Shown piece after piece: positions 11,947 through 48,267 of a DNA stretch of 64,000 nt. The DNA lies in NCBI RefSeq assembly GCF_011762095.1, contig NZ_JAASQO010000013.1, forward strand, positions 1 to 64,000, in the 5' to 3' direction. Source of the stretch: Parvibaculum indicum (GTDB taxonomy: Bacteria > Pseudomonadota > Alphaproteobacteria > Parvibaculales > Parvibaculaceae). The translations under genes were made by a program, and so were the position numbers. The notes below the pieces were generated by a model, which was given only the letters and a program-made list of their open reading frames with translations, had not been told where the DNA came from and did no database searches. Each line of letters starts with the position of its first letter. Within the stretch, counting starts at the first letter, position 1.

Positions 11947-11954
11947 TCGCGCCT

Positions 11955-31632: not shown

Positions 31633-31691
31633 CGACCGCACCGGCGGAGTCGGGCAAAGACCCGGCCGGGCCGAAATGATAGGGTGGCCAC

Positions 31692-32717: not shown

Positions 32718-33283
32718 GTGCGTCTTCGCGAGCACGACGCAAAGGTGCTGCTGCGCTGGGCCGACGAGCGCTATGGGTTCTGACTGGCATAGTGGTGTGG
32801 TGCCCGATCGCGGAAGCACAGCCTTGCGTGCCGTGTCGGAAGCGTCTGTTCGCCGCAGTACGAAGCGGTTGCCCGACCGAGGATATCTCGACCATCTATC
32901 TCGCCGCGGCGCTCCGCGACAATGGTGGCGGGCAGCTCATCGGATCCGAGTTGGAGCCCGCCAAGGTGGCGCGGGCGCGGGCGCATATCGACGCGGCTGG
33001 CCTCGGCGACCTGGTGGAAATTCGCGAGGGTGACGCGCTCGAGACGCTCAAGGATGTCGGCGGAGAGGTCGACCTTGCACTGATCGGCGGTGCCTGGTCG
33101 CTCTACCTGCCGGTGCTCAAGCTAATTGAGCCCCGGCTGCGGCCCGGCGCCGTGATCTTGGCCGAGAACGCATTTGCGGAGGACTATCTGGGATATGTCC
33201 GCAATCCCGCGAACGGCTACATCGCGCAGACGCTGCCGATCGACGAGGGCCGCGGCAACGAATTCGCCGTGAGAATCCTGTAA
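32714..33283 (+). pseudogene. 5'-truncated O-methyltransferase remnant
   Basis: From about residue 58 the frame matches a predicted SAM-dependent O-methyltransferase (DISTIYLAAALRDNGGGQLI, then GSELEPAKVARARAHI and LVEIREGDALETLKD). The segment that should hold the first SAM-binding motif (VEFGTSFG-type glycine loop) is replaced by unrelated sequence (CPIAEAQPCVPCRKRLF). The usual catalytic D in the VLLDGWK-type strand reads LIGGAWS. The gene is therefore probably dead, although the frame stays open to 33283. The next gene overlaps its stop codon, which fits the common methyltransferase/siderophore-interacting protein pairing. Confidence 0.7.
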
Positions 33284-34025
33284 TGCCGGCGTCAGGAGCG
33301 GATGGCAGCGCCGCGAAGGCGCCTGGCCGGCTCAGCAAGGCGCTTCTGGGCCTCTTCGTGAAGCGCGCGACCGTCGCGTCGATCGCCGATATCGGCGATC
33401 GCTTTCGGCTCGTCACGCTGGATGGAGCTCCCTGCGGGGCGTCGCATGGACCCCCGGGCACAAGGTCCAGATTGCGATGGGCTCGGCCTTCGTAAGTCGC
33501 ACCTATACGCCGATGGATTGGAATGCGGCCGAGGGGCGCACCCGTATCCTCGGTTACATGCATGGCGAAGGGCCGGGAAGCGCATGGCTGCGCGGCCTCA
33601 GGGCAGGCCACGAATATCATCTCTTCGGACCGCGCAGCCCGCTCGATGCAGGGCGTGCGACGGCGGCGCTGGCTGTCTTCGGCGATGAAACCTCGATCGG
33701 GCTCGCCCATGCGCTGGCATCGACGGACCGGGCTGGCGCCGTGAGTTGCTGCTTCGAGATCGGCGACATCGAGAGCTGCGGCCAGGCCTTGGCACGACTT
33801 GGTCTCGAAGGGGCGACGCCGGTCACGAAGCGCGAGGATTACGGGCATGTCAATGATATGGGGGCAGCGCTTGGCGCGCCGATCGCTGCTGGAGCCTCGT
33901 TCGTGTTGACGGGCAAGGCCGGCACCATCCAGCGGCTTCGGCAAGATCTAAAGCGGCGGCGTGTGCCGGCAGCCCGTATCCTCACCAAGGCGTATTGGGC
34001 GCCCGGGAAACAAGGACTCGATTAA
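33283..34025 (+). pseudogene. Siderophore-interacting protein (FAD-dependent reductase), frameshifted
   Basis: The first frame (ATG 33283) gives the N-terminal part, SKALLGLFVKRATVASIADI, to LVTLDGAP. At 33430-33432 one C is missing from a C-run. The second frame continues LRGVAWTPGHKVQIAMGSAF and RTYTPMDW, the flavin-binding R-x-Y-T motif, through to 34025. Restored length is about 248 residues, normal for the ferric-siderophore reductase family, which releases iron by FAD/NADPH-dependent reduction. It is either inactivated or interrupted by a sequencing indel. Preceded by the methyltransferase remnant. Confidence 0.8.
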
Positions 34026-34158
34026 ATCGGAACACAATGAGCGGCCACCGGATCGGGGCACAGCCGCAATTTCCAGTTGGCGAAGGGCAGAATGGTATCC
34101 ATCGCTGCCCCGGCGCGGCACGCCGACATACGCAAAGCCTATCATGGTCCGCGCAAGG

Positions 34159-35010
34159 CTAGGTAGGGGACTCATTTGAGCCATTGCGTCGCAAGAGCGA
34201 CGAGGGCGATGGCTGCGAGGAAGTTTACGGCGAGCCTGTCGTATCGTGTGGCGATGCGCTTCCAGTTTTTGAGCTTCCCGAACATGCGCTCGATGATGTT
34301 GCGGCGCCGGTATGCGGGGCGGTTGAGGGCATAGGCAGCGTTTCGGGTTGCGCGACCCGGTATGATGGCTTCGATCTGCCTGTCGCCGAGCCAGTTTCGC
34401 AGTCGATCGGCGTCATAGGCCTTGTCTGCAAGGAGACGTTTGGCCGGCGCGATGGCCTCCAGCAAGGGCATGGCCATGCTGATGTCGGCGATGTTGCCCG
34501 GTGTCAGCGCGATGGCGACGATCCTGCCGCAAGCATCGGCCAGACAATGGATTTTGGTCGTTCGGCCGCCCCGCGATACGCCGACCGCCTGCGTCCACTC
34601 CCCCCTTTTCCGCCGGAAGCTGACCGATGCGCCTTTACATGGGAGCTGTCGAGCATCAGTTCATCAGGGATCGCTCCCCCTGCGGCGACCTTGGCGAAAA
34701 TCCGCTGCCAGACGCCGCGATGCGCCCAACGGGTGTAGCGATTGTAGATCGTCTTTGCCGGGCCGTATTCGGGCGGTACGTCGCGCCAGCGCGCCCCTGT
34801 CTTGAGGATGTGAAGGATGCCGCTGATCACACGCCGGTCGTCGACGCGCGGTCGACCCGGCTGGTTGTGAGGCAGATGGGGTTCAAGACGCGCCCACGCA
34901 TCGTCCGATAGCCAGTAGAGATCAAGCATGGTGTCCTCCATGCCCCCGCGACCCATACCCGCAGAGAATCTCCCAATCTTGACAATTGTTTGGTTGGGTC
35001 CCCTACCTAG
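34159..35010. mobile_element. IS5-family insertion sequence (IS427-like), 852 bp
   Basis: Flanked by CTAG on both sides (34159-34162, 35007-35010), either the target duplication or the outermost bases of the repeats. Terminal inverted repeats are GTAGGGGACTCA and GTAGGGGACCCA (11 of 12). It encodes one transposase in two overlapping frames. Size, ends and frameshifted transposase fit the IS427 group of IS5. It sits at the 3' end of the hydrolase gene at 35007-36275. Confidence 0.9.
34172..34956 (-). CDS. IS5-family transposase, two frames joined by programmed frameshift
   Basis: The upstream frame (34504-34956) starts MEDTMLDLYWLSDDAWARLE and carries the DDE domain's first aspartate region (ELMLDSSHVKAHRS). 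The downstream frame (ending 34172) begins within the overlap and carries KIHCLADACGRI, LLADKAYDADRLR and a conserved RRNIIERMFGKLKNW block with the catalytic Glu. The junction holds AAAAGGGGGG (complement of 34600-34609), a normal slippery site for this group, so the split is programmed rather than a mutation. The fused product is about 260 residues. Catalyses cut-and-paste transposition of the element. Confidence 0.88.
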
Positions 35011-36275
35011 TCATCCAGCGGCTCAAGGACTTCGCCATGCCGCGTCCGCCGAATCGCGACGCAATCCGGGCACAGTCGCAGCGACGGAACGCCGGGCATC
35101 GTCTCGGCGCTATTGACCAGACGATAGTCGTCGCCGGGATCGCCGCACGAGGAGCAAACTTCCGAAGCTCCCTCCTTCGCGATCGACATCCGTGCGATAG
35201 CTCCCAACCGAGGCTCCAAGCGATCGATGATGGAGAACCAGAGTTCGGAATGCGGCACGATGCGCTCGAGCTCGTTGGAAGCATCCGACGGAAAGTGGCG
35301 ACGCAGCCAGGCGAGCGCCGTCTCGCGGCGCATTTGATCGTTCAAGGCCAGCTGCTCGTAGAGCACAACCAACTGCCCGGTTGTCTCGCGGCCGGCCGCC
35401 CCATACGACGCCTGATATTGAACGAGATTCACCGCGTAGCGAAGCCCGCCAGTGTATGCCTCTCGCACAGTGCTCACACAGTATGATCGCAGGTCAATGA
35501 TCGTGCTCTGATCCGTCCTTTTTTCCATGGCATCGAGGTCATAGTGCCAAGGATTGACCTCGAAATCGGTCTTCCAGAGTTCCAGATAGCCGGAGTCGCG
35601 ATAGGCGCGCGCGATGTCGGCATCCCATTCCGGATGGGCCTGCACCAAGCGATCCAAGTCGGTGAAGTTCTCAATGGATGGATCGAGCCGGCGTGCGGCG
35701 GCAAGGACGGCATTCTGAGCATCATGCGTGTCGGCGATCGGATTTGGCCGATCACGCCAAGCCGCAATCTCCTCCTTCGAGACAGGTTCGACGATGTCGC
35801 TGACCGCAACGAGCAGCGGGCTGATCCGCACTTCTTCCGGGGTGCAATAGTCCGGATCCGGAGCGAGCTGCAGGCCAGCGCTCGCATACGCTCGCGCGAC
35901 AAGGCGCGAGCAAAACATCTGACGGCTTCGGGGCTTCGATCCGGGAATAACCGATCGCGCCGCCTCAATCTTCGAATAGCGTGTACCAATCTCAAAGCGG
36001 GCGAAATCGAGAACGAGGTTGAGATGGATCCGGCTTAGCGGAGCCCGGAGACGGAACACAAGGAGCTCGGCGTCGTCCTCGTATAGTTCGCGCTGGATGT
36101 TGCGCGCCTGGACGCCGTAGTCGGTCGAGTCAATGACCGAGCCATGCTGGACGCAGATCATCGCGTGGGAAACGGAGCCTCTGGTCGACAAGCGCACGAA
36201 CTTGCTGGTTTTGCCACCATCCGCAGTGAGCACGATGTCGCCTGGCTCGAGGCTCTCGACCTTAATTCGCTTCAT
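35007..36275 (-). CDS. Permuted NlpC/P60-like cysteine hydrolase with C-terminal zinc ribbon
   Basis: 422 residues. The N-terminal domain has GDIVLT (12-17), then His37 (SVSHAMI), with the nucleophile later at Cys122 (FCSRLVARAY). This is the circularly permuted papain order of YiiX/YebB-like enzymes, which act as amidases, peptidases or lipid acyltransferases. The C-terminus carries two CxxC pairs (VCSSCGD; LRLCPDC), a zinc ribbon. The middle 200 residues are unassigned. No signal peptide, so cytoplasmic. The stop codon TAG falls in the CTAG at the IS5 end; because that base group is duplicated, the original stop was probably the same. Confidence 0.75.
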   Translation of the reverse strand: MKRIKVESLEPGDIVLTADGGKTSKFVRLSTRGSVSHAMICVQHGSVIDSTDYGVQARNIQRELYEDDAELLVFRLRAPLSRIHLNLVLDFARFEIGTRYSKIEAARSVIPGSKPRSRQMFCSRLVARAYASAGLQLAPDPDYCTPEEVRISPLLVAVSDIVEPVSKEEIAAWRDRPNPIADTHDAQNAVLAAARRLDPSIENFTDLDRLVQAHPEWDADIARAYRDSGYLELWKTDFEVNPWHYDLDAMEKRTDQSTIIDLRSYCVSTVREAYTGGLRYAVNLVQYQASYGAAGRETTGQLVVLYEQLALNDQMRRETALAWLRRHFPSDASNELERIVPHSELWFSIIDRLEPRLGAIARMSIAKEGASEVCSSCGDPGDDYRLVNSAETMPGVPSLRLCPDCVAIRRTRHGEVLEPLDD

Positions 36276-36323
36276 ACGAAAACCAGCTCCAACTCAAATC
36301 GTCGCCTAAAATCATCGCTGCTC

Positions 36324-37016
36324 CTACGGCTCCGCGAGCAGATTGCCCTCGTCCTCGCCGCCTTCTTCGCCGCCATCGTGCTCGCGGCCACCTATCGGAA
36401 TTTCTCCCGCCAGCAGCTTCTCCTTGCTCAGCAGGCCGGCGTCCTCCAGCGCTTCCATATCCGGCAGGTCGCGCAGCGTGTCGAAACCGAAGTGAGAAAG
36501 GAATTCATTCGTCGTCACGTAGGTGTAGGGCGCTCCCGGTTGCGGGGACCGCGGTCCGGCAGCGATGAAGCCCAGGGCGCGCAGATGGCCGATCACGTCC
36601 CGACTGACTTCCTTGCCGAAGAACTGGCCGAGTTCGCCACGGGTGATCGGCTGAAAATACGCGATGCACATCAGGATCAGAGCGTCCGACTGCGACAGCG
36701 GCTTCGTCCCGGTCCCAAGGCCAGTGGCGGCACGGATCGCATTGGCGAAACCGCTCTTCGTGCGATGCTGCCAGCCGCCAGCGACGGCCACGAGCTCATA
36801 AGGGCGGCCGCGCAGCTCCTCGCGGATGTCATCGATGATCAGGTCGAGATTGCACTCGCGCCCGACAACGCGGGCCAACACCTCCCGGCCGACCGGCTCC
36901 GGCGAGGCGAAGATCACCGCCTCGACCCTGCCCATCCATTCGCGCCAGCGCAGCTCGGCCGGCAATTCCGCGAGCTCGATATCGAGTCCTTCCTCGCGCC
37001 GCGCCCGCTTTGCCAT
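36324..37016 (-). CDS. scpB: SMC-Scp complex subunit ScpB
   Basis: 230 residues with two winged-helix domains: WMGRVEAVIFASPEPVGREV (27-46), and SQSDALILMCIAYFQPITRG followed by ELGQFFGKEVSRDVIGHLRA. ScpB binds ScpA and regulates SMC in chromosome compaction. This copy is encoded next to a DUF1403 protein and without scpA or smc in the window, an arrangement I recall from rhizobial plasmids. It may act in plasmid segregation or borrow host SMC-ScpA. The C-terminal tail is acidic and low in complexity. Its start follows the DUF1403 stop by 3 bp. Confidence 0.88.
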   Translation of the reverse strand: MAKRARREEGLDIELAELPAELRWREWMGRVEAVIFASPEPVGREVLARVVGRECNLDLIIDDIREELRGRPYELVAVAGGWQHRTKSGFANAIRAATGLGTGTKPLSQSDALILMCIAYFQPITRGELGQFFGKEVSRDVIGHLRALGFIAAGPRSPQPGAPYTYVTTNEFLSHFGFDTLRDLPDMEALEDAGLLSKEKLLAGEIPIGGREHDGGEEGGEDEGNLLAEP

Positions 37017-37019
37017 GGT

Positions 37020-37973
37020 CTACAGCCCGTAGAGCCGGAAGGCCGGCCGGCCGGAGAGCTCGCGCACCGCGCCCAGTGTCTCGAGGCGTTCGAACAGACG
37101 TCGGGCACCCCAGCGCGACAGGTGCGCGGTTTGCAGCGTGCCTGGAACGGCATCGTCGTCGAGCAACAGCCGGATCGCCTCCCCTGCTCCTTTCGCGCGC
37201 AACTTCGGCGCCACGGCCTCGAGTCGGGCCGCACGGTCAGCGACATCGCCGGCCAGCCGACAGGCCTCCACCGCTGCCTGTGCGAGCGCGACGCAGACCG
37301 CGCGCTGGAACCCTTCTCCTCCCGGGCGAATCCGGCCACGACTGCCCTCGCCCCGGAAGGCGCTGCTGCGCGCCTGCGCGATGAGGATCGGCACCGGCAG
37401 CGGCCAGCGCAGCCGCAGTGCCAGCACCTGGTCGGCGAGCCACCAGCCGAGCAGGTCGGCGTCGGCCCGCAGCGCCTGCACGTCGCCGGCGATCGCGGCG
37501 GCGGCGAAGGGCGCGGGAGCTCCAGTGCGGGCAAGATCGCCGACCCGATCCACCAGCGGCGCCAGCTCGTCGCTCCAGCGTAGGCCGAGCAGCGCTACGG
37601 TCGACCGCAGGGTCTCCAGATCAACTCCGGGCGAGCGGCCTGCGAGGCGCTTCCAGGCGGCGAGAATATTGCCGGCAGGGCCTGGATCGTCACCCGGCTG
37701 GCGCAGATGCCAGGCATCACGCAACGCGCCCTCGTCCTCAGCGCGGCCGACGACGGACACGGCCGCGGCGGCGCATTTCAAAGCGAGACGCTGGCGCCAG
37801 GCGCCGGCCCAAGCTGGATCGGAACGAACCAGATTGTCGAGCGAATTCAAAGCGGAACCGGCGAAGAAGGCCGCCTCCGCATCGCTCGTCACCGCCCCAC
37901 GCGGCACCGCCCAGCCCGGCACGGTCGGTGGCGAACGGTCAGGCGCGCAGGGATGGACGACGGCCGGAATCAT
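37020..37973 (-). CDS. DUF1403 family protein
   Basis: 317 residues from ATG 37973 (GTG 37979 also possible). It is alanine- and leucine-rich, with helical repeats (AAFFAGSALNSLDNLVRSDP; LLGWWLADQVLALRLRWPLP) and a C-terminal winged-helix-like end (LSRWGARRLFERLETLGAVR). I recognise DUF1403, a rhizobial-plasmid family of unknown function that travels with this ScpB. The 3-bp spacing to scpB implies one operon and a shared task in DNA maintenance. No membrane segments. Confidence 0.78.
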   Translation of the reverse strand: MIPAVVHPCAPDRSPPTVPGWAVPRGAVTSDAEAAFFAGSALNSLDNLVRSDPAWAGAWRQRLALKCAAAAVSVVGRAEDEGALRDAWHLRQPGDDPGPAGNILAAWKRLAGRSPGVDLETLRSTVALLGLRWSDELAPLVDRVGDLARTGAPAPFAAAAIAGDVQALRADADLLGWWLADQVLALRLRWPLPVPILIAQARSSAFRGEGSRGRIRPGGEGFQRAVCVALAQAAVEACRLAGDVADRAARLEAVAPKLRAKGAGEAIRLLLDDDAVPGTLQTAHLSRWGARRLFERLETLGAVRELSGRPAFRLYGL

Positions 37974-38051
37974 GGGCACAGCATAGCCGAGGCGTGCGCT
38001 TCATGCCACTATATTGACGCCAAAGCGCACGCCGTGTCATGAATCAAAAAC

Positions 38052-38076
38052 GTCCGATAATGTTGCATTATCGGAC
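38052..38076. promoter_or_regulatory. 25-bp palindromic operator between DUF1403/scpB and vapBC
   Basis: Perfect inverted repeat with 11-bp arms, GTCCGATAATG-TTG-CATTATCGGAC. It ends 3 bp before the vapBC -35 hexamer and 79 bp from the DUF1403 start codon, so a bound VapBC complex could control one or both directions. Confidence 0.8.
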
Positions 38077-38079
38077 ATA

Positions 38080-38108
38080 TTGACAGAGGGCGCCAAACAG
38101 GGTAGAAA
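38080..38108 (+). promoter_or_regulatory. vapBC promoter
   Basis: TTGACA (38080-38085), 17-nt spacer, TAGAAA (38103-38108). The start would lie about 28 nt before the vapB ATG. The perfect palindrome overlaps the region just upstream of the -35. Confidence 0.65.
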
Positions 38109-38142
38109 TGACCTGAAAGGTAGAATATTCGGAACCCTTCCC

Positions 38143-38400
38143 ATGTCTCTGAACATCAAAAATCCGGCGACCGTCGCCCTTGCCGACGAGCTCGCCCGCC
38201 GCCAGGGCGTCACCAAGACTGCCGCCATTCACCAGGCCCTGAGCGAACGCCTGCACCGCATGGGCTATGGAGATACCGCTCAAGCACGTCTTCTCGGCGA
38301 GCTGCGTGCAATCCGCGAGCGGGTGGCGCGGTTACCTGAGCTCGACACCAGGAGTGACGAGGAGATCGTTGGCTTCGACGAGCACGGAATCCCAAACTGA
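38143..38400 (+). CDS. vapB: VapB-type antitoxin
   Basis: 85 residues from ATG 38143, opening MSLNIKNPATVALADELARR, the start of Rv0623-like (PSK operon) ribbon-helix-helix antitoxins. The N-terminal half binds operator DNA, and the C-terminal half (ERVARLPELDTRSDEEIVGF) wraps the toxin. The longer frame upstream runs through the promoter and is rejected. The stop overlaps the vapC start by one base (TGATG). Autorepression through the 38052-38076 palindrome is likely. Confidence 0.88.
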   Translation: MSLNIKNPATVALADELARRQGVTKTAAIHQALSERLHRMGYGDTAQARLLGELRAIRERVARLPELDTRSDEEIVGFDEHGIPN

Positions 38401-38786
38401 TGGTGATCGATACCTCTGCCATTGTTGCGATCCTGCGCAATGAGCCTGAAGCCGATGCGCTCGAGCGATTGATCGTCGGCGCCCCTGTTCGCCTCGTCCC
38501 CGCTACATGCGTGTTTGAGGCCCGAATGGTTCTGGTCAGCCGGCGCGGCGAGCACGCGCTCGCCGAGATCGACCTGTGGCTCACCAAAATTGGGGCCGAC
38601 ATCATTCCGGTCGACGCGGAGCTGGCGGACCTGGCAACGCAGGCCTGGCTTGCTTATGGTAAGGGGCGCCACCCGGCCGCACTGAATTTCGCCGATTGCT
38701 TTTCCTATGCCCTGTCGAAGCGCTCCAACGAGCGCCTACTCTTTATCGGCAACGATTTTTCCAAAACCGACATCCTTGCGGCCTAA
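38400..38786 (+). CDS. vapC: VapC PIN-domain ribonuclease toxin
   Basis: 128 residues with the PIN acidic triad: Asp4 (MVIDTSAIV), Glu near 41 (CVFEARMVL) and Asp99 in NFADCFSYAL; the ending GNDFSKTDI is also typical. VapC toxins cleave tRNA or rRNA loops and stop translation when VapB is degraded. It is partnered with vapB, which overlaps by one base. The most likely role is plasmid stability. Confidence 0.92.
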   Translation: MVIDTSAIVAILRNEPEADALERLIVGAPVRLVPATCVFEARMVLVSRRGEHALAEIDLWLTKIGADIIPVDAELADLATQAWLAYGKGRHPAALNFADCFSYALSKRSNERLLFIGNDFSKTDILAA

Positions 38787-38867
38787 CCATCCCACCTCAC
38801 GCGCCTCCAAGGTCCCTGAAAGCGCCCCTTTTCCGCACAGAAGGCCGTAGGCGAGCGTTTTGACGTT

Positions 38868-38888
38868 AGATGACCCTTGGGTCCATCT
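38868..38888. repeat. Imperfect palindrome upstream of the serine recombinase
   Basis: AGATG-ACCC-TT-GGGT-C-CATCT: 9-bp arms with a one-base bulge. It lies 120 bp upstream of the recombinase start in otherwise unassigned DNA (38787-39008). It could be part of a res site or a regulator site. Confidence 0.4.
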
Positions 38889-39008
38889 GAAACCCACCGG
38901 CCGCCTTCACGGTCCTCTGACGCGATCGATAAAACACGCCTGCAAAGGTTCGTTTGCTCAAATCTGTATTGATTGTACAAAGGCCCTATAATCGCCCCTG
39001 GAAGCACC

Positions 39009-39941
39009 ATGGCCCGCCCCGCCTTCTCCCCTCCCCGGCCGGCTCGCCGCCTGATCGGCTATGCCCGGGTCTCGACCGACGAGCAGGCGACCGATGCCCA
39101 GGTCGACGAGCTGCGCGCGGCCGGCTGCCAGATCATCCACCAGGAGCACGGCTCCGGGGCCTCGCGGGCCCGGCCGGTGCTGGCCAAGCTGATGCGCGAG
39201 ATCCGCGCCGGCGACGTCCTGGTGGTGGTGCGGCTCGACCGCCTCGCCCGCTCGGTCAGCCACCTACTCGTGGTGATCGAGGAGCTGGAGGAACGTCAGG
39301 CCCACTTCCGCTCGCTGCGCGACCCGATCGACACCTCGACGCCGCAGGGCATGTTCTCGCTGCAGGTGCTCGGGGCCGTCGCCCAGCTTGAGCGTGCTCT
39401 GATCGCCGAACGCACCAAGGCCGGCATGCGAGCGGCCAAGGCGCGGGGCAAGATCGCCGGCAATCCCGGCCTGCGCGAGCGTCGGCCGGAAGCCATCCGC
39501 GCCGCCTCGGCGGCACGTCAGCGTGTCTATGTGGGCGATCTGATCGCCTCGGCCTCGGTCTGGCTGCCGATCGTGCGGCGCCTGCGTCCGCAGCACAGCT
39601 GGGACGACGTGGTGCGGGTACTAAACAATCGCGGCCAGAGCTGGACCATCGAAAAGCTGCGGCGCGCCGTGCATCGACTCGTGCAGGAGAGGATGGCGGA
39701 GGCGGAGCTGCTTCGGCGCTCACCGCGGCGCCCGCCCGAGGATCGGCTGATGACGCTCGTCGCCGGCATCGCCATCGCCGACCCGGATCTCAGCTTGCGC
39801 GACATCGCCGCCCAGCTTGAGCGGATGCGCGAGCGGACGCCGCGTGGCGGGCGGCAATGGGCGGCCTCCTCGGTCAAGTCCCTGTTGGACCAAGCGCTCC
39901 GGCTGGGGCTCGTGGTGCCACAGCCGCGCGATGATGCCTGA
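39009..39941 (+). CDS. Serine recombinase (resolvase/invertase family)
   Basis: 310 residues from ATG 39009 (GGAAG upstream). The catalytic N-terminal domain starts LIGYARVSTDEQATDAQVDE with the nucleophile Ser in ARVST, then VVVRLDRLARSVSHL and QGMFSLQVLGAVAQLERALI. The C-terminal part is longer than in Tn3 resolvases and carries two helix-turn-helix-like segments (WTIEKLRRAVHRLVQE; LSLRDIAAQLERMRE). It could be the resolvase of the tni transposon or a plasmid dimer-resolution enzyme belonging to the ScpB/DUF1403/integrase cluster common on rhizobial plasmids. Confidence 0.88.
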   Translation: MARPAFSPPRPARRLIGYARVSTDEQATDAQVDELRAAGCQIIHQEHGSGASRARPVLAKLMREIRAGDVLVVVRLDRLARSVSHLLVVIEELEERQAHFRSLRDPIDTSTPQGMFSLQVLGAVAQLERALIAERTKAGMRAAKARGKIAGNPGLRERRPEAIRAASAARQRVYVGDLIASASVWLPIVRRLRPQHSWDDVVRVLNNRGQSWTIEKLRRAVHRLVQERMAEAELLRRSPRRPPEDRLMTLVAGIAIADPDLSLRDIAAQLERMRERTPRGGRQWAASSVKSLLDQALRLGLVVPQPRDDA

Positions 39942-39985
39942 GATTGTGCGGGGTCCGCTACGCAGCAACGAGGAAACGAAAATCG

Positions 39986-42900
39986 TTAGGCGCCGGCGCT
40001 CATGGCAACGCGGCCCGGTTTCATGTCGGTGGCAATAGGACCCGATCTGGTGAACTGAATCAGGAAGTTCATCTCTGACCCGACCGTGAGATTGAGCCAA
40101 TCATCGGGAGACGCCTGGTCCTGCCGACCATAGATGTCCTTCGGGTAGGCTGATGATCTCACGAAGAGATAATTCAACTCCTGCTTTCTCACGATACCGC
40201 TATATCGGCCGAGGAGTTTCGAAATGGGAGAGTCCCGCCGGGGAATTGCCGACCTCCAATCGGCTGGCGCCCGTTTATCCACCTCGGCAAAAATCTCCGC
40301 AGCCTCGGCGGCCGATCCTATCAGGAACAGAAACTGTGCATGGAGGTGCCGGGAGTCGAAATTGTGATCACCCTTGCTGTAGCTGCGGGCCAGATGCCCC
40401 CCGATTAGATTGCGATCGCCCCCGCCGGCGAGAAGAAATTTGGCCATTTCGAGGTGCAGTTGCTTATCGTCCGGGAGCCGCTCCAAAGCTGTCGTGTAGA
40501 TACTTTCTGCCTTATCCTTCTTCCCTCGTGCGACATAGGCATTCGCGAGTCTAATGGCCACACCGGAACCCCTGGCGCCGAGCGCAAAGGCACGTTCTAA
40601 TGCCCTAAGAGCCTTCTCCGGTCGTTCGAGCACCTCATGGAGTCGTGCCTCGACTTGCTCAACGTCGGAGCTGTCGGGAGCGAGCTGATGTGCCCGTGCT
40701 AGTAGATCCTCGGCAGATTTCACTTGGGTGGCAAAGTAAGCAACATCGTGCTCTTTGCTGTCCTCAGCGAGACCGTCACCTAACGTCTCGATTTCGTCGA
40801 TGATAAGCTTACAGCGACTGGTTACTGCCAGTGGGTCTTTCGAGGAACTCATCTCGTCGAGACGCTCGCGCGCCTGCCGCCGAAACTGCTCCTTGAGCAC
40901 GATCGAGCGCTCTGCATTGGCGCGGTGTCGGGCGACCTCAGCCTGTGTGTGAATGATGGAGCCCGATCTCGGGGAAAGCTCACGAGCACGGCGGGCAAGA
41001 TCTTCAGCTTCTATAAGCGATCCATGCTTGTGGTGCATTTCAAAGATCGCCCAGTGCTGAAGAATATGCGCATTCTCCGGGACAGCGGTGACCGCAGCCC
41101 GATAAAGCGCCCGGCCAGCCTCGACGCTCGACAGGTCCTCGCTCAGCTTGCGCCCGCGTACGATGTCTTGGAGCACTTGGCTGTCGGTTGAATAGCCAGG
41201 ATCCAGACCGTTAATGATGCGGGTGAGTTGAGCGACCTTCTCCTCGTCCGTTGGGCAAGCTCCCCTGAACACGAACTGCGCAACGCGCGAGTGGCGCGCG
41301 CGATACTGGAAATCGCCGGTGTAAGGGTCACGCAACGTCATCACGACATTCTGCAAAGGGTCGAAGAAATCACGCTGGTAGTCTTCGAATCGGATACCGG
41401 AGATGCGCGAGATCGTTCCAGCACGGACTGGCACGGCGAACTGATTCATGGTTGCAATGTCTAAGTAGAGGCGCTGCGCCTGCCCTGGAACGATGCGCTG
41501 ATATTCCTCTAAAACGATCTCCTCGAACCGCTTGCCTTGGGTCGCCTCATGCAGGGCCACAAGCAGTTGGCGCTCGGCTCGCTGTTGGAAGGCCTCAACC
41601 TGCTCGGCTCTCGTCATCGTGGCCAAGAGCCCAAGAGACTGATGGCGGGTGAGAAGATCCAGGAGGCGCTCGATCTCCCCCATGGACAAGTTTGCGACGC
41701 GCAGCTCAATCGGTGCAAAGGGCTTCAGGGGGTCAGCATAGACATTCCAGTCGGTATCGCGCTCGGCAGCGATCACGGTCAGCGGCATCTTGCGAGATTT
41801 CGCGAGTCGGAGGACGGCGGCAACACGATCAGCATGGAGGGCGACACGATCGACGAAAAGGAAAATCCGGCGTCCAGTTAGTTCGTGCAACTCGACCAGA
41901 CGCTCGCCTATAAGCGCCCCGCCCGGCTCGAACCAAAGCGCCAGCGCGCCACAAATGGTGGCCGCATCCCATGCCGCACGCTTAAGGGCGATGGTCTTTC
42001 CAGCTCCACCCGGCCCGCGTAGCAGAAAAAAGCGCAGGTCCGTGGAATCGGGCTTTTCGTCCGTAACGGCCTTAAGCACGAGATCGCCAGTCAGACGTCG
42101 CTCGACATCGAGCCGCTGCACGATCGCGCCCCAGCCAGTGTCAAAGCCTTCGTAGAACTTCCTGGCATCCTGGGGCGGGTGCGGCAGATCCTGGTGCAGA
42201 AAGGTGAAGTCCCGCTCCAGTGCAGCCTTAAGCTGCGGTGTCTCAAAGGAATTGATCCGATAGAGCTTGCGGATCGGCAGCTCCTTCACATCGGCCGTTA
42301 CCGCAAGCGAGCGAAACAGTGGGTCAACCGCTCTATCAAGCGCTTCCATGAATTCACCGAAGCGGGCGTTGATGACGGTGACGTTCATGCTCGACCAGTA
42401 GGTGATCTCGGGCTCCGGGAGGTTTGGAACGACGAGATAGTATCGAGGTCGAGTACCTAGTCCGACGAAGCGATGAACGAGCTTGCGAATGTGTCCATCC
42501 GCCATCCTGTAACCACAGAAAACGATTGGGCTCTCTCGAGCACGGTCTTCCAGACGACCGAAGAGGCGGGTGCGTCCATTGGCGTAGCGGTCATAATGCT
42601 CGTGGGAGAGAATTGGCGGCAGCGCCGGATCGTGTAGCTGATCGAGGCATCCGTGAAGCTTCAGAAATTCCACACCGCGAGTCGCGGCCTGCATCCGCTC
42701 CTCGACCGGCTCGGTATCCCGAACGAATGTGACAAGGTTCTGCACACGATTAGGCGTCGCCGCATAACCCCGCTCAACGAGCAGGTCGTAGTTGGTGGTA
42801 GCGATCGTCCGCCAGCGAAACGTTGGTAGGAGCTTGTGGGCGTCCGATGGCTCGTAGCTCGCCAAAAGGGTACGCAGATATTCGAAGACGACGCCGTTCC

Positions 42901-43123
42901 CATGTGCTTGCAAAGCCATTTCCGCAACGGACATCAGGTCGTAGCCGCCCATCTCGGTGCCGAAGAACTGCTTTGCTAAGGATGCCCGGAGAGAGTCGCC
43001 GGAGGGAGCTCCTGCCTCCATAGACGCGCCAGCCCCCAAAAACATGATCACCCGCTGCTGCTGCATCGAAGCAACCAGGGCGTCGGGAATACCGACGGAA
43101 TTGCGCGAACGTCTTGCAGCCAT
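39986..43123 (-). CDS. SIR2-STAND-TPR protein, candidate antiphage NADase
   Basis: 1045 residues from ATG 43123 (GAGG about 8 nt before). The N-terminal SIR2 domain has FLGAGAS (28-34), TTNYD (109-113) and KLHG (155-158), the NAD-binding and catalytic elements. A STAND-type P-loop ATPase follows: GPGGAGKT (370-377) and Walker B FLFVD (421-425). The last 350 residues are helical tetratricopeptide-like repeats that would sense a trigger. The layout matches Avs/SIR2-STAND defence proteins, which deplete NAD on phage recognition. It is flanked by a serine recombinase and tniQBA, so probably transposon cargo. Confidence 0.85.
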   Translation of the reverse strand: MAARRSRNSVGIPDALVASMQQQRVIMFLGAGASMEAGAPSGDSLRASLAKQFFGTEMGGYDLMSVAEMALQAHGNGVVFEYLRTLLASYEPSDAHKLLPTFRWRTIATTNYDLLVERGYAATPNRVQNLVTFVRDTEPVEERMQAATRGVEFLKLHGCLDQLHDPALPPILSHEHYDRYANGRTRLFGRLEDRARESPIVFCGYRMADGHIRKLVHRFVGLGTRPRYYLVVPNLPEPEITYWSSMNVTVINARFGEFMEALDRAVDPLFRSLAVTADVKELPIRKLYRINSFETPQLKAALERDFTFLHQDLPHPPQDARKFYEGFDTGWGAIVQRLDVERRLTGDLVLKAVTDEKPDSTDLRFFLLRGPGGAGKTIALKRAAWDAATICGALALWFEPGGALIGERLVELHELTGRRIFLFVDRVALHADRVAAVLRLAKSRKMPLTVIAAERDTDWNVYADPLKPFAPIELRVANLSMGEIERLLDLLTRHQSLGLLATMTRAEQVEAFQQRAERQLLVALHEATQGKRFEEIVLEEYQRIVPGQAQRLYLDIATMNQFAVPVRAGTISRISGIRFEDYQRDFFDPLQNVVMTLRDPYTGDFQYRARHSRVAQFVFRGACPTDEEKVAQLTRIINGLDPGYSTDSQVLQDIVRGRKLSEDLSSVEAGRALYRAAVTAVPENAHILQHWAIFEMHHKHGSLIEAEDLARRARELSPRSGSIIHTQAEVARHRANAERSIVLKEQFRRQARERLDEMSSSKDPLAVTSRCKLIIDEIETLGDGLAEDSKEHDVAYFATQVKSAEDLLARAHQLAPDSSDVEQVEARLHEVLERPEKALRALERAFALGARGSGVAIRLANAYVARGKKDKAESIYTTALERLPDDKQLHLEMAKFLLAGGGDRNLIGGHLARSYSKGDHNFDSRHLHAQFLFLIGSAAEAAEIFAEVDKRAPADWRSAIPRRDSPISKLLGRYSGIVRKQELNYLFVRSSAYPKDIYGRQDQASPDDWLNLTVGSEMNFLIQFTRSGPIATDMKPGRVAMSAGA

Positions 43124-43192
43124 TGTCGCAGGCCTCAGCACTTTGAATGTTGCCAGCCGTCGCCTTTTCTCGGCATGAGTCGGCCCTTTCGA

Positions 43193-44371
43193 TTAGGGGA
43201 CCATGCAGAGCGCATCTTTTGCAAGGCAAGGTTGCCGGTATCCCGACCCTCTTGGTAATAGTGCACGTTCGGCCAACACCTGCTCAATAAGGGAGTTGAG
43301 CGTCCGACGCTGCGTGCGCGAATCCTGCCCCTGTACGGCACGCCATTCCGCACTGGCCAGGATAGATTGGGCGAGCGTCAGATAGTCCGAATCCGATCGG
43401 CCGAGGGTCTTCGCGCGCGAAGAAACCGCCATCGGCACGGACCGCTCTTTGACCTGCCGGGGCGGCTCCTCGGTCCAAGCCACCATCTGGTCGAGAGAGA
43501 AGGACAGGTGACCCAGCCTCATCGAGGAGCTGCCAAGGTCCAGCAACGCTGCGACGCCCAGCAGCGTCACCATGCGCCAGCCGATCGGCGCCGTTGCCAG
43601 CGGCTCGGCGGGATCGACCCGCGCCTGTGCCGTCGGTGTCAGACGAAGATCCGGCACAACATCTGCCACGAACGGTGTGCGACGGCCGGTGCGCGGGCGC
43701 GGCGGATTCCATAGCAGCCGGGCGACATGGAGCATCCGATCCCGAACCGCAGACTGATCGTTGATCGCTGCCGCCACCAGCGTCGATACGGCGGCAAATA
43801 GGTCCGCGGAACCGCCGCGCCGCTCCTGGGGCATCGTTCGGGCGATGCTACCGCATCGGACACAGGCCAGCCGAGCTGCCGCCTCATGAACAACGAAGCG
43901 AGAACCGGAGCTGTCGAGACAGTGAGGACAGGCTTCGTCGAGAACGCGATGATGGCGCTCGCAGACCACAGTCTCGACCAGGGCCCAAGTCCGGCGGATA
44001 TGATGGTCACGGCAAGCGGCGGCATCATCATCAAGACAGGCCAAGCAGACCGGCCGCCGGAAAGCGCCGGCCACTCTCCCCTCCCCCCAGACATACCAGC
44101 TGCGCGACCGTGGCCGCGAGGAGAGCGCGAGGGCCCGCACGCGCTCTTCCGGAAGACGGCACGACGCCGCCCACGCCTGCACCATCGCGGCCGAGGGTGC
44201 GAAGTCCCGCTCGGTGAATCCGGCACAGCGGTCGTCCCGGAGGACGCCAAGCCACCTGGAAAGGTCGTCGGGGATGAAGTTATAGCGGCATGCGACGCGA
44301 CCTTGCCAAGACGACAGCAGCTCATCGCCTTCCGGGCGGGGCGCAAGCGGGAGCTCGCGCCGTATGGTCAT
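43193..44371 (-). CDS. tniQ: TniQ, target-site/assembly factor of a Tn5053-like transposon
   Basis: 392 residues from ATG 44371, overlapping the tniB stop (ATGA). It opens with the TniQ-domain start (RPEGDELLSSWQGRVACRY). Cys/His pairs follow (VCLACLDDD, CRDHH, VVCERHHRVLDEACPHC, LACVRCGS) as zinc fingers. TniQ is a TnsD-like protein that directs TniA/TniB transposition to target sites. Third gene of the tniA-tniB-tniQ operon. The downstream 69 bp separates it from the SIR2-STAND gene. Confidence 0.85.
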   Translation of the reverse strand: MTIRRELPLAPRPEGDELLSSWQGRVACRYNFIPDDLSRWLGVLRDDRCAGFTERDFAPSAAMVQAWAASCRLPEERVRALALSSRPRSRSWYVWGEGRVAGAFRRPVCLACLDDDAAACRDHHIRRTWALVETVVCERHHRVLDEACPHCLDSSGSRFVVHEAAARLACVRCGSIARTMPQERRGGSADLFAAVSTLVAAAINDQSAVRDRMLHVARLLWNPPRPRTGRRTPFVADVVPDLRLTPTAQARVDPAEPLATAPIGWRMVTLLGVAALLDLGSSSMRLGHLSFSLDQMVAWTEEPPRQVKERSVPMAVSSRAKTLGRSDSDYLTLAQSILASAEWRAVQGQDSRTQRRTLNSLIEQVLAERALLPRGSGYRQPCLAKDALCMVP

Positions 44372-45285
44372 CTGCCGGCCCGCGGCTGAAGGCGCGCCTC
44401 GACCTTGCGCGTCATCGCGACGAGCGGCAGCACCAATTCCTCGGTCTGGAAGCTGTCCATGGTGATGCATTCGGCGCCGGAGCGGATCGCCTCGACCGCA
44501 ACCGTCTCGATCAGGCGGAAGATCCGCACCGTGACGCCATCGGTGAGATCGAGCACGCGCGAACGGATCGCCGGCGCCGCCAGGTTCGAGGGCCGGCGCA
44601 GCGGCAGTATCGTCGCCAGGCTCGCCAACAACTGCGCGAGGCGGGCGTCATTCTTCCAGTGCCGCAGGTGGAGGGCCTCGAATCGCTCTGCCAGCTGCGG
44701 ATCGGTCAACAGCGCCTGGCGCGCGAGGTCCGTCCCCGCGCAAACCAGAGGAATCCTGAGATCGTTAGCCAGAAACCGGATGGCGTTCAGAAAAATCCGC
44801 TGTTGCCGGAAGCTTCCGGCGAGCATGGCGTGGATCTCATCGATGATCAGCATGCGGGCGCCCATGCTGCGCAGCAGCCGGCGGCAGACCTCCTTCTGCC
44901 GGTGGGTCGCCCCGTCTGCAGGCCCGGGCGCCCCGAGCGCCGTGAGCAGCTCGCTGTAGATGTCCCGTTCGATCGGCTCGGCCGGCATCTGCATAGCGAC
45001 GACCGGCATGGAGGTCACGCCCGTGCCCTGGTCGAAACTGGCGGGATGGTCGCGCAGGAACTTGCGGATGATCTTGGTCTTGCCCATGCCGGTGTCGCCA
45101 TAGATCAGCAGGCACGGCATGCGGTCGCGTGGCGGATATACCAGAAGGTCCTCGAGACGTCCGAGCGCGGCCCGTGCCTGATCGAGGTCGAGCCACCGAT
45201 CCGCTCGGATCCAGGCGATCCGCTCCGCATCCGTCAGAGTGGCCTGGTGGCGGTATGCCGGCAGAAGATGGGCGTAGTCGGTCAT
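44368..45285 (-). CDS. tniB: TniB, transposition ATPase
   Basis: 305 residues from ATG 45285 (GAGGA 6 nt before), overlapping the tniA stop (ATGA). AAA+ ATPase of the TnsC/MuB type: Walker A YGDTGMGKTKI, Walker B MLIIDEIHAM, sensor-like VCAGTD. It binds target DNA in an ATP-dependent way and delivers it to the TniA transposase. Middle gene of the tni operon. Confidence 0.9.
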   Translation of the reverse strand: MTDYAHLLPAYRHQATLTDAERIAWIRADRWLDLDQARAALGRLEDLLVYPPRDRMPCLLIYGDTGMGKTKIIRKFLRDHPASFDQGTGVTSMPVVAMQMPAEPIERDIYSELLTALGAPGPADGATHRQKEVCRRLLRSMGARMLIIDEIHAMLAGSFRQQRIFLNAIRFLANDLRIPLVCAGTDLARQALLTDPQLAERFEALHLRHWKNDARLAQLLASLATILPLRRPSNLAAPAIRSRVLDLTDGVTVRIFRLIETVAVEAIRSGAECITMDSFQTEELVLPLVAMTRKVEARLQPRAGR

Positions 45286-46925
45286 GACCATTCCTCGACC
45301 GCAAGAACGGACAGCGTCTCCGGCTCTTCCTTCGGGCCAGGCGTGACGCCCTCCGCCGCGGCGCCCTGATCTGCGGCGCTGAGCGATCTCGTCCGCCGCG
45401 CGACCTGACGGCGTGCGGATTTCGTGATCGATGCAGAGGTCTCCAGAAGCTCGCGCTGGGCCTCGACCGTGTCGAAGATCAGTTGCTCGTCGGTGAGCCG
45501 CACACCGCGCTGCCGCAAGGCCGCCTGGGCCAGCCGATGCTCGCCGAGCGTGATGCGGGGGCGACGCAGATCGGCATACCGGATCGGCCAATGGGCGCCG
45601 TCGGGGCCCTCGACGAACACGCAGGACAGGTCGCGGGGATCGTATTTGACCCGCAGCTGTCGGTCGAGCCGGCCTGCCCAGGGGCTCAGAACGTCATCCC
45701 AGTAGCGCAGGCCGAAGATGTGCACGCCATCCCGACGGATGCTGCGCTCCTCGAACGGCAGGAAGTCGTAGAAGAACTGCTGATCATCATGCGGGTGCCG
45801 GAACGGCGCGCGGCGACGATCGAGAGCCTCCCGCCAGGCGGCATTCGGAGGCATATGCAGGCTGCTGTGGACCTCGTTGTGGTAGCGGCCAACGATTTCG
45901 AGCGTCAGCCAGCGTTCGAGCTCCTCGATCGTCATGACGGCGTGACGCTCGGGATCGTAGTCGCCGCGCTCTGCAGTTGAACTGAACGTGGTACCGGGGA
46001 GCATATGGACCGCTCCCATCATGGTGCCGATCAGCCGCTCGATGTGGCCGCCATAGTGCGGAGTTGCCACCGGCCGGTGGACCAGCGAGATGCCGTACTC
46101 GGCAGCTCCACGGGCCAGCGCCCGGGCGCGGAACTCGCGCGCATTGTCAACGTGGATGATGTCCGGCAGGCCCGACACAGGCCAATCGAGCTCGATGCCG
46201 CGCGCCAGGAGCCACTCCGCCTTCGGCATCACCGCATGATGTATGGCTAGGGCGACCGATGCCGACGAGGGCGCCTCGAGGCTCAGATAAAAGCCCACCA
46301 CGATGCGGCTTGCCACGTCGATCGCGAGCGTCAGCCATGGCCGCTGGATCGGCAGGCGGTAGATCGTGTCCACCACGAAGAGATCGACGCGCGTGTGATC
46401 GATCTGGACGATCTGCAGCGCGTGATCGGCACGGTATTCCTCCGGAACCGGTCTGAGCCGATCTCTGGCGGCCTTGTTGCCTTCACGCTGGCGAACAAGC
46501 TTGAAGCGATCGATCTGCTCGACACGGGCTCGAACGGCTTTCCAGGACGGAATGTCCAGCCCGCGTTCACGACAAAGATGCCGGATGTGGTCATGAAGCG
46601 TGCTGACGGACGCCTTTTGCCGGGTGAGATACTTGTCGCGGATCGCCTCCTCGATGGCCGCCTCGACCTCGACGGCGAGGCGCCGGGCTCCTTTCTTTGG
46701 GCCAGGCCGCGCCGCAGCGAGCGAACTCGTCACCGGCGTGTTGCGGTATTGTTCGATCAGCGCGTAAAGCCGGCTCCGGCGCAATCCGAGGATACGGCAC
46801 GCCGTCGCCACGTCGACAGGCGACAATTGTCCTGCGTTGATCAGTGGCTGGATGACCGCCTCTCGGGCGACCGCGACCTGCCATCTGGCGTCATCGATCG
46901 CGTGCTTGTCTTGGTCGCGCGGCAC
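45282..46925 (-). CDS. tniA: TniA, DDE transposase of a Tn5053/Tn402-like transposon
   Basis: 547 residues, start GTG 46925 with GGAGG 7 nt before. It has an N-terminal helix-turn-helix DNA-binding region (RILGLRRSRLYALIEQYRN). The rve integrase core has Asp in QIDHTRVDL, Asp in IHVDNAREF and Glu in GGHIERLIGT. A C-terminal Mu-type beta-barrel domain follows. It cuts the transposon ends and joins them to target DNA. Upstream of its start lie three 21-bp repeats likely to be its end-binding sites. Confidence 0.92.
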   Translation of the reverse strand: MPRDQDKHAIDDARWQVAVAREAVIQPLINAGQLSPVDVATACRILGLRRSRLYALIEQYRNTPVTSSLAAARPGPKKGARRLAVEVEAAIEEAIRDKYLTRQKASVSTLHDHIRHLCRERGLDIPSWKAVRARVEQIDRFKLVRQREGNKAARDRLRPVPEEYRADHALQIVQIDHTRVDLFVVDTIYRLPIQRPWLTLAIDVASRIVVGFYLSLEAPSSASVALAIHHAVMPKAEWLLARGIELDWPVSGLPDIIHVDNAREFRARALARGAAEYGISLVHRPVATPHYGGHIERLIGTMMGAVHMLPGTTFSSTAERGDYDPERHAVMTIEELERWLTLEIVGRYHNEVHSSLHMPPNAAWREALDRRRAPFRHPHDDQQFFYDFLPFEERSIRRDGVHIFGLRYWDDVLSPWAGRLDRQLRVKYDPRDLSCVFVEGPDGAHWPIRYADLRRPRITLGEHRLAQAALRQRGVRLTDEQLIFDTVEAQRELLETSASITKSARRQVARRTRSLSAADQGAAAEGVTPGPKEEPETLSVLAVEEWS

Positions 46926-46944
46926 GTGTCGACCTCCGCACTCG

Positions 46945-47007
46945 CCTTGATCCAGTGATCAGGGCTAAGATTCCAACGAACAAGGCTGAATCCACCGAAT
47001 TAGGGTG
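46945..47007 (-). repeat. Three 21-bp tandem repeats, transposon end (TniA sites)
   Basis: On the minus strand the three units start at 47007, 46987 and 46966: CACCCTAATTCGGTGGATTC, AGCCTTGTTCGTTGGAATC and AGCCCTGATCACTGGATC. They share the A[GC]CC-T..TC..TGGA-TC pattern at a 20-21-bp period. Tn5053- and Tn7-like elements carry such arrays at their ends. The outer boundary is probably near 47010-47025. No matching left end was found. Confidence 0.65.
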
Positions 47008-47055
47008 AGCCGAACATGTTAAAAATCAATCAAATGGAATCCGGGGAAAAAAGCA

Positions 47056-48267
47056 GTGCGACAGGCCCGAATCGTCGATCAAAATACCGAAAATCGTACT
47101 CAGCTCGGCTCTGCTCGATCACAGGAAACACCACCGGGTGTCGACCAGACCGCGCCGATCGCCGACGACCTGCCCGACATCATCGATGTCGTCCTGGAGA
47201 TGGGCCGTGTGCCGGAAGAGCCACCGGCGGAAGCCGCAGCCCCTTCCCCTCCCCTTCCGGTCGTTTCGACCCCGCGCTTGCCGGCGCATCTCGACGCGCT
47301 CGCCGACCGCGCGCGCGATTATGTCGAGGCGGCGAGCTCTGCCAATACCCGCCGCGCCTACACCTCGGACTGGAAGCAGTTCGCGAGCTGGTGCCGTCGG
47401 CAGGGCGTCGAGATGTTTCCGCCCGATCCTCAGGTGGTCGGCCTCTACATCACGGCCTGCGCCTCGGGGAAGGCGACCGGCGACAAGAAGCCCAATTCCG
47501 TGTCGACGATCGAGCGTCGGCTCTCCGCGCTGACGTGGAACTATACGCAGCGTGGCCAGCCACTCGATAGGAAGGACCGTCATATCGCCACCGTCATGGC
47601 CGGCATCCGCAACAAGCACGCCGCCCCACCCCGGCATAAGGAAGCGGTTTTGCCCGAGGACCTGATCGGCATGCTGGAAACGCTCGACCGCGGCTCTCTA
47701 CGCGGCTTGCGCGACCGCGCCATGCTTTTGCTTGGCTTTGCCGGCGGCCTGCGCCGCTCGGAGGTTGTCGGCCTCGACTGCGGCCGCGACCAGACCGAGG
47801 ACTCTTCCGGCTGGGTGGAGATCCTCGAAAAGGGCATGCTGTTGCGCCTGCGCGGCAAGACCGGCTGGCGCGAGGTAGAAGTCGGGCGCGGCTCAGCTGA
47901 CGCCACCTGCCCGGTCGTAACCCTCGAGCTTTGGCTGAAAATGGCGAAGATTGCCCGCGGTCCCCTATTTCGGCGCGTGACGAGCGAAGGCAAGAATGTC
48001 GGCCCCGACCGCCTGAACGACAAGCAGGTCGCCCGATTGGTCAAACGGGCCGCTCTGGCCGCCGGCGTCAGGGGCGATCTGACGGAGGGCGAGCGTGAGG
48101 AGAAATTCGCCGGGCATTCGCTGCGCGCCGGCCTCGCGTCCTCGGCCGAGGTCGACGAACGCTATGTCCAGAAGCAGCTTGGGCACGCCTCCGCCGAAAT
48201 GACTCGAAGATACCAACGCCGCCGCGACCGGTTCCGGGTCAACCTGACCAAGGCTGCCGGGCTGTAA
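47056..48267 (+). CDS. Tyrosine recombinase (site-specific integrase)
   Basis: 403 residues, start GTG 47056 with GGGG several nt upstream. An N-terminal SAM-like core-binding domain (SANTRRAYTSDWKQFASWCR) precedes the catalytic domain with Arg in GGLRRSEVVGL, HSLRAGLAS (His/Arg box), KQLGHAS and the nucleophile Tyr in MTRRYQRR. The first 80 residues are Pro/Glu-rich and unstructured. Integrases of this kind lie next to repC on many rhizobial plasmids and may resolve dimers or integrate cassettes. It converges on repC. Confidence 0.92.
   Translation: MRQARIVDQNTENRTQLGSARSQETPPGVDQTAPIADDLPDIIDVVLEMGRVPEEPPAEAAAPSPPLPVVSTPRLPAHLDALADRARDYVEAASSANTRRAYTSDWKQFASWCRRQGVEMFPPDPQVVGLYITACASGKATGDKKPNSVSTIERRLSALTWNYTQRGQPLDRKDRHIATVMAGIRNKHAAPPRHKEAVLPEDLIGMLETLDRGSLRGLRDRAMLLLGFAGGLRRSEVVGLDCGRDQTEDSSGWVEILEKGMLLRLRGKTGWREVEVGRGSADATCPVVTLELWLKMAKIARGPLFRRVTSEGKNVGPDRLNDKQVARLVKRAALAAGVRGDLTEGEREEKFAGHSLRAGLASSAEVDERYVQKQLGHASAEMTRRYQRRRDRFRVNLTKAAGL

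What the first reader, a model, noticed from the sequence alone, without database searches (positions are those of the whole stretch)
39986..43123. SIR2-STAND-TPR protein as transposon-borne antiphage candidate
SIR2 NADase motifs (GAGAS, TTNYD, KLHG), a STAND ATPase (GPGGAGKT, FLFVD) and a TPR-like sensor lie in one 1045-residue protein. It lies between a serine recombinase and a tni operon, so the defence gene probably moves as transposon cargo. Its sensor region is different enough that the trigger cannot be guessed.
Basis: partly seen in the sequence, partly recalled or inferred. Interest (0 to 1): 0.8.

Follow-up and report, generated by a model that had tools for sequence, protein, structure and literature searches.

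The report
Transposon-carried SIR2-STAND-TPR-cold-shock immune sensor
A bacterial plasmid transposon carries a large protein that is probably an antiviral self-destruct switch, destroying the cell's NAD when infection is sensed; its layout, with an overlooked nucleic-acid-binding tip, resembles both the bacterial Avs5 defence proteins and the human antiviral protein SAMD9.

Summary
The ORF is real: 39986-43141 minus (1051 aa from GTG; 1045 from ATG 43123), SIR2 + nSTAND NTPase + TPR, catalytic residues intact. Transposon carriage is supported: a complete 8457-bp tniABQ-SIR2-tniR element, identical over window 38940-47063, is in Rhodopseudomonas AAP120, and a 5284-bp relative with 5-bp target duplications in Ancylobacter lacks the gene, so it is an insertion between tniQ and tniR. 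The window copy has no detectable left end. Tni linkage is otherwise absent (0 of 14 other homologue loci); relatives lie on plasmids, in a tRNA-side island, in two prophages and, in E. coli, in the psu-int defence hotspot of a P4 satellite. By sequence the STAND core is nearest Avs5; by fold the best PDB hits are human SAMD9, whose core is also SIR2-STAND-TPR-OB, closely followed by Avs5. Best reading: an Avs5-like, NAD-depleting abortive-infection sensor whose TPR and CSD form the sensing end, perhaps for RNA or ssDNA. Defence, NADase activity and ligand are inferred, not tested. New variant of a known kind.

The parts
39986..43141 (-). SIR2-nSTAND-TPR-CSD protein, 1051 aa from GTG (ATG at 43123 gives 1045 aa)
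42302..43069 (-). SIR2 NADase-type domain (aa 25-280): G36/G38, N117, D119, H163
   Evidence: Pfam SIR2_2; invariant residues; alignment to solved SIR2 chains
41732..42160 (-). nSTAND NTPase (aa 328-470): Walker A GPGGAGKT, Walker B FLFVD
   Evidence: Pfam PF25199
40247..41161 (-). TPR / alpha-helical repeat array (aa about 661-965)
   Evidence: Pfam TPR models; AF2 model
40007..40219 (-). cold-shock (OB) domain (aa about 975-1045)
   Evidence: family profile vs PDB CSDs; fold of the tail of this protein; Pfam CSD in relatives; not hit by Pfam in this protein itself at E<=0.01
43193..44470 (-). tniQ; 3' end replaced relative to Ancylobacter from about 43290
44368..45591 (-). tniB (true start probably further in: the Ancylobacter gene is shorter)
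45282..46925 (-). tniA (DDE transposase)
38973..39941 (+). tniR, serine recombinase
46926..47063 (-). right end of the transposon; outermost bases TGTCGCACTG start at 47063
   Evidence: same junction in AAP120, Ancylobacter and Xanthobacter
38814..38972 (.). remaining part of the left arm, probably the res region; left terminal repeat not found in the window
38052..38076 (.). palindrome GTCCGATAATG-TTG-CATTATCGGAC, also beside the left end in AAP120 and Ancylobacter; candidate target mark

Best explanation
A single-protein STAND immune sensor of the Avs5 type with an extra nucleic-acid-binding tip. At rest the TPR/CSD end keeps the NTPase closed. An infection-made ligand (protein, RNA, ssDNA or a ribonucleoprotein) binds TPR and/or CSD; nucleotide-dependent opening lets the STAND modules assemble; the SIR2 domains are brought together and hydrolyse NAD+, so that the infected cell stops before phages are released. 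The gene was inserted between tniQ and tniR of a Tn5053/Tn402-like transposon on RepABC plasmids and has moved with it between genera. Shown: the domains, intact catalytic positions, conservation of the architecture, mobility of the unit (sequence comparison), a family member in a known defence hotspot. Inferred: NADase activity, assembly, abortive infection, ligand.
For: SIR2, nSTAND and TPR domains; N117, D119, H163 and Walker A K kept in 12 of 12; in solved SIR2 chain 9v12 the positions matching N117 and H163 are Ala while 9v0g has N and H, as expected for catalytic positions. The SIR2-STAND core is homologous to Avs5: STAND profile best PDB hit EfAvs5 9jap 4.7e-8; family profile to 9jap 9.7e-18. 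Avs5 SIR2 hydrolyses NAD+ on phage infection (PMC12931631, passages and section 9). CSD: profile to Unr CSD 2.1e-9 and CspA 2.8e-6; tail model to CspA, TM 0.84 on target length; Pfam CSD above cut-off in L004 and L044. E. coli member between psu and int of a P4 satellite, the hotspot described in PMC9122126 (passages). Members in two prophages. Transposon.
Against: No activity has been measured. PADLOC names it only by the SIR2 part. No match in 50,697 phage records. The family is rare (2 of 385 genomes of the class; 1 of 5426 E. coli genomes). 5 of 13 family proteins, this one included, have no Pfam CSD hit at the thresholds used. The full-length model is mediocre (pLDDT 69.7, pTM 0.48, catalytic loop 115-175 below 50). 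The window copy lacks a left transposon end.
Confidence: 0.7

Rival explanations
1. It guards the plasmid or transposon against other mobile DNA (incoming plasmids, conjugation, related transposons) rather than against phages; mechanism otherwise the same.
For: It lies on a RepABC plasmid near AbiE and VapBC genes; most plasmid relatives are on conjugative or mobilizable plasmids (11 + 3 of 16).
Against: Prophage and P4-satellite carriage points to inter-phage conflict at least in part of the family.
Confidence: 0.2
2. It regulates the transposon: placed 70 bp behind tniQ with no promoter-like site found, it could sense target or replication state and control transposition.
For: Position and orientation in the tni operon; no promoter-like or terminator-like site in 39850-43400 (alphaproteobacterial promoters are poorly covered).
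Against: The 5284-bp Ancylobacter element with target duplications does without it; 0 of 14 other family loci have TniA/B/Q nearby.
Confidence: 0.05
3. SAMD9-like action: the protein acts on translation or RNA through the CSD, and SIR2 is regulatory rather than a killing NADase.
For: Best fold hits are human SAMD9; same core order as SAMD9 (PMC5445408, part 1 of 4 of the text); CSD present.
Against: SAMD9's nuclease is the AlbA-type domain (PMC13245274, passages), for which no Pfam hit appeared here; here SIR2 and P-loop are intact, whereas SAMD9 has a variant SIR2 and a Walker A K-to-G change.
Confidence: 0.1

Closest known systems
Avs5 (AVAST type 5; EfAvs5 9jap, PaAvs5)
   Same: SIR2 effector, nSTAND NTPase, C-terminal helical repeats; closest solved relative by STAND sequence
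   Different: Avs5 is described with nSTAND3 and TPR/Sel1/PPR repeats, 869 aa for EfAvs5; here about 1050 aa, PF25199 is the best NTPase model, and a cold-shock domain follows the TPRs. The CSD profile does not find Avs5 at E<=1
Human SAMD9 / SAMD9 family
   Same: SIR2-like, STAND P-loop, TPR, cold-shock-like OB in that order; top Foldseek hits 9zjr, 9zjz, 9zjv (E 2.8e-15 to 4.2e-15)
   Different: no AlbA or SAM domain found; intact SIR2 and Walker A; no sequence hit from the STAND profile at E<=10 or the CSD profile at E<=1; TM only 0.26
TIR-STAND-TPR and SIR2-STAND proteins of the P4 hotspot (PMC9122126)
   Same: effector + STAND + repeats; one family member lies in that hotspot
   Different: the paper's passages seen mention no cold-shock domain; its tables were not seen
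ThsA, KomC, DSR2 SIR2 NADases
   Same: SIR2 domain
   Different: no matching STAND-TPR-CSD part was reported for them in these searches; ThsA and KomC belong to multi-gene systems (recalled)
Tn5053/Tn402-like (Tni) transposons
   Same: tniA-tniB-tniQ-tniR, TGTC ends, 5-bp target duplication in the Ancylobacter relative
   Different: a large immune-type gene inserted between tniQ and tniR instead of cargo beyond res

Membership tests
Avs5 (AVAST type 5) | N-terminal SIR2 with catalytic N | tested here: met
Avs5 (AVAST type 5) | nSTAND3 (PF20720) NTPase as described in PMC12931631 | tested here: inconclusive
   P0001 hits PF25199, not PF20720 at E<=0.01; relatives L034, L011, L044 and L012 hit PF20720 weakly (6.4e-6, 1.2e-4, 0.0039, 0.053); STAND profile finds EfAvs5 at 4.7e-8
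Avs5 (AVAST type 5) | C-terminal helical repeats as the last part, no CSD | tested here: not met
   CSD follows the TPRs
Avs5 (AVAST type 5) | phage-triggered NAD+ hydrolysis | not testable with these tools
   needs experiment
SAMD9 family | SIR2-like, P-loop STAND, TPR, cold-shock-like OB in that order | tested here: met
SAMD9 family | AlbA_2 (tRNase) or, in bacterial members, N-terminal kinase | tested here: not met
   no such Pfam hit; SIR2 starts near residue 25
SAMD9 family | Walker A lysine replaced by glycine | tested here: not met
   lysine in 12 of 12
SAMD9 family | whole-chain fold similarity | tested here: inconclusive
   best PDB hits, E 2.8e-15, but TM 0.26 on a model of pTM 0.48; Avs5 follows at 1.2e-14
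Tn5053/Tn402-like transposon | tniA, tniB, tniQ and a resolvase | tested here: met
Tn5053/Tn402-like transposon | terminal repeats and 5-bp target duplication | tested here: inconclusive
   met in the Ancylobacter relative (GGTGG both sides); both ends present in AAP120 with one flank base only; left end not found in the window
[quoted passage not shown]
   for the E. coli relative L044 only; not for the window gene

The most novel reading that the evidence does not exclude
A mobile bacterial counterpart of the SAMD9 core that still has a working NADase and P-loop: the cold-shock tip is the trigger sensor and detects RNA, ssDNA or RNP made during infection. It would represent the catalytically intact state from which the SAMD9-type core, with its variant SIR2 and P-loop, could have come.
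Probability: 0.2. Interest if true: 0.8.

Novelty: new variant of a known kind. Interest (0 to 1): 0.55.

Why it matters
If right, a small, testable bacterial family links Avs5-type NADase immunity with the SAMD9 architecture, including the C-terminal OB/cold-shock domain whose role in SAMD9 is only predicted. Deleting or mutating the CSD in a laboratory E. coli strain would ask directly whether a STAND sensor can be triggered through a nucleic-acid-binding tip. The paired Ancylobacter (gene absent) and AAP120 (gene present) elements show in detail how an immune gene was inserted into the transposition module of a Tni transposon.

Tried and rejected
Avs membership by PADLOC: no Avs name for P0001, but two 818-839-aa SIR2-nSTAND proteins (L037, L038) also get none, so the absence says nothing; dropped as evidence. 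TPR hypervariability: identities of P0001 to L002/L003 are 72/73% in TPR against 83/78 SIR2, 69/76 NTPase, 91/85 in aa 471-660; variable, not hypervariable. Swapped effectors on the same STAND-TPR-CSD: the 762-aa query gave 16 plasmid records, 14 with >=80% cover; the 14 best full-length-query records (H1-H14) match from query residue 15-36 on, so no swap was seen. Sequence link to SAMD9: not found (of only the best 60 of 191 were seen). Promoter/terminator scan: nothing. Left end in the window: best scores no higher than the window-wide background. Genome-search hits at class level for TniA (8 of 385, 34-42% identity outside the own genome) were not followed.

Full report
Observation. Pfam finds SIR2_2, nSTAND_NTPase5 and TPR. 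It lies 51 bp after tniQ (70 bp from the ATG) and 45 bp from the stop of a serine recombinase on the other strand. The plasmid is of the RepABC type with a TraI-type AHL synthase gene and, further on, trb-like genes (the trb naming of the window genes is by eye and by synteny with the annotated Ancylobacter plasmid).

Protein. In 12 full-length family proteins (window, L002, L003, L004, L007, L008, L009, L011, L012, L014, L033, L044) the SIR2 N, D and H and the Walker A lysine are kept in 12 of 12; the GAGAS motif varies in its third and fifth residues (GSGAL in two) and L044 has STNYD. Alignment with solved SIR2 chains puts N117 and H163 on positions that are N/H in 9v0g and Ala in the variant 9v12.

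The missed domain. The last 70-80 residues align across the family. A family profile of that tail finds Unr cold-shock domains (2.1e-9) and CspA (2.8e-6) in the PDB. Pfam CSD is hit in 8 of 13 family proteins scanned, above the curated cut-off in two (L004 4.7e-7; L044 1.5e-9), weakly in L007, L011, L012, L014, L033 and L034, and not in L002, L003, L008, L009 (E<=1) nor in the window protein (E<=0.01). The AF2 model of the window protein's own tail (pLDDT 78.6) gives CSDs as best PDB matches, TM up to 0.84 on target length. Aromatic residues at the places of the recalled RNP1 and RNP2 motifs are mostly kept, so nucleic-acid binding is plausible but unproved.

Relation to known proteins. The STAND profile has EfAvs5 (9jap) as best solved relative, 4.7e-8, and no SAMD9 among its 51 hits at E<=10. 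So PF25199 is not peculiar to this family; the long TPR array plus CSD is. The full-length model (7 sequences, pLDDT 69.7, pTM 0.48, poor in aa 115-196 and 278-350) has human SAMD9 as its three best Foldseek hits (2.8e-15 to 4.2e-15), then EfAvs5 (1.2e-14), other SAMD9 chains, the AVAST5 filament and DSR2; TM scores are low (0.26 at best among these), so this is similarity of parts and order, not a superposition. The SAMD9 core was described as AlbA_2, SIR2-like, P-loop STAND, TPR and an OB most like cold-shock proteins, with Walker A K changed to G, also present in bacteria (PMC5445408, part 1 of 4 of the text). The Avs5 paper already reports Avs5-SAMD9 structural similarity (PMC12931631 section 9). 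What is added here is a bacterial mobile family with the OB/CSD end and intact SIR2 and P-loop. Searches for print on a SIR2-STAND protein with a cold-shock domain found none in the held library (listings, plus passages of the papers named here); this library lacks most subscription papers.

Transposon. Window 38903-47064 aligns with L001 (Rhodopseudomonas sp. AAP120, 8514 bp): 8 differences, all at or before 38939, none from 38940 to 47064. Ancylobacter plasmid pA (L025) has tniABQ 93.8% identical (window 47073-43290) and tniR 90.3% identical (39944-38814), with tniQ and tniR 59 bp apart and no gene between. That element runs 11863-17146 (5284 bp), TGTCG at both ends, flanked on both sides by GGTGG. 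AAP120 has both ends, L001 2-8458 = 8457 bp; only one flank base is available on one side (C), which fits a GGCTC duplication. In the window the right end is at 47063; the left arm stops matching at 38814, VapBC follows, and no left end scores above background. The change from L025 begins inside tniQ, about 97 bp before the window's tniQ stop, so the insertion also replaced the TniQ tail. The gene is less G+C-rich (58.7%) than tniABQ (66.1%) and tniR (71.0%), in keeping with a later arrival.

Eight related Tni plasmid loci were read out of 3813 records with a TniA match (5 records at 95-99% identity): in 4 (L025, L028, L029, L030) tniR follows tniQ directly; in 4 (L026, L027, L031, L032) no intact tniR is annotated next to it; 0 of 8 has a SIR2 gene there. 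DUF1403 and scpB lie downstream in 5 of 8.

Homologue contexts. 0 of 14 other loci have TniA, TniB or TniQ (tblastn E<=1e-3; L014 holds only 1.5 kb on each side and L004 1.2 kb on one side). L033: between Mu F-like and Mu-like protease genes of a Mu-like prophage. L034: broken copy between a tail gene and a lambda-type integrase. L044: between psu and int of a P4-like satellite in E. coli N18-04097, the hotspot of PMC9122126 (passages). L007: downstream of tRNA-Leu and a tyrosine recombinase, with a serine recombinase after it. L008: Vibrio plasmid with ICE-type conjugation genes. L009-L013: Klebsiella, Psychrobacter and Acinetobacter plasmids, two of them with broken copies by annotation (L010, L013). 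L003: another SIR2 gene and a recombinase nearby; L002: Xre/RES toxin-antitoxin next to it. Frequency: 2 of 385 genomes of the class (own included); with the profile 8 of 398 genomes of the phylum sample, of which only the own genome covers the whole profile; 1 of 5426 E. coli genomes; 0 of 50,697 phage records; 15 plasmid records with >=80% cover.

Mechanism. Avs5, the nearest characterised relative, hydrolyses NAD+ through SIR2 after phage sensing (passages). With the same catalytic positions and a STAND module, the simplest reading is ligand-gated assembly and NAD+ depletion. The TPR and CSD parts are the sensing end by analogy with Avs5's C-terminal repeats; the CSD suggests RNA, ssDNA or RNP, which is inference only.

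Noticed in passing
window 38973-39941 and L003, L007, L009, L011, L012, L013: A serine recombinase gene lies within 600 bp of the family's gene in 5 of 15 loci and within 2.6 kb in 7 of 15; random placement gives 0.52 and 2.12. Without the window and L013 it is 3 and 5 of 13 (P about 0.003). The recombinase profile was seeded partly from these loci and some loci are related.
   Followed up: partly
window 38052-38076; L001 8490-8514; L025 about 17176-17200; L032 about 21209: The same palindrome (TCCGATAAT...ATTATCGGA) stands beside the left transposon end and near DUF1403-scpB on several RepABC plasmids, perhaps the target mark or a res-like site.
   Followed up: partly
L005 about 10001 (window 40416): A Parvibaculum MAG shares window 29989-40416 at 100% and then departs inside the SIR2 gene: rearrangement or assembly join.
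   Followed up: no
window 29799-31632: AbiEi/AbiEii pair (PADLOC 1.1e-88 and 3.8e-96) on the same plasmid.
   Followed up: no
window 38014-38786: VapB/VapC-type pair where the transposon's left arm would be expected.
   Followed up: partly
window 36324-37979: DUF1403 and ScpB genes, found next to Tni elements on 5 of 8 related plasmid loci read.
   Followed up: no
window 35007-36275: Permuted papain-like amidase (Peptidase_C92, 2.2e-8).
   Followed up: no
window 34172-34956: IS4/5-type transposase fragment(s) (DUF4096 1.3e-28 for 34504-34956).
   Followed up: no
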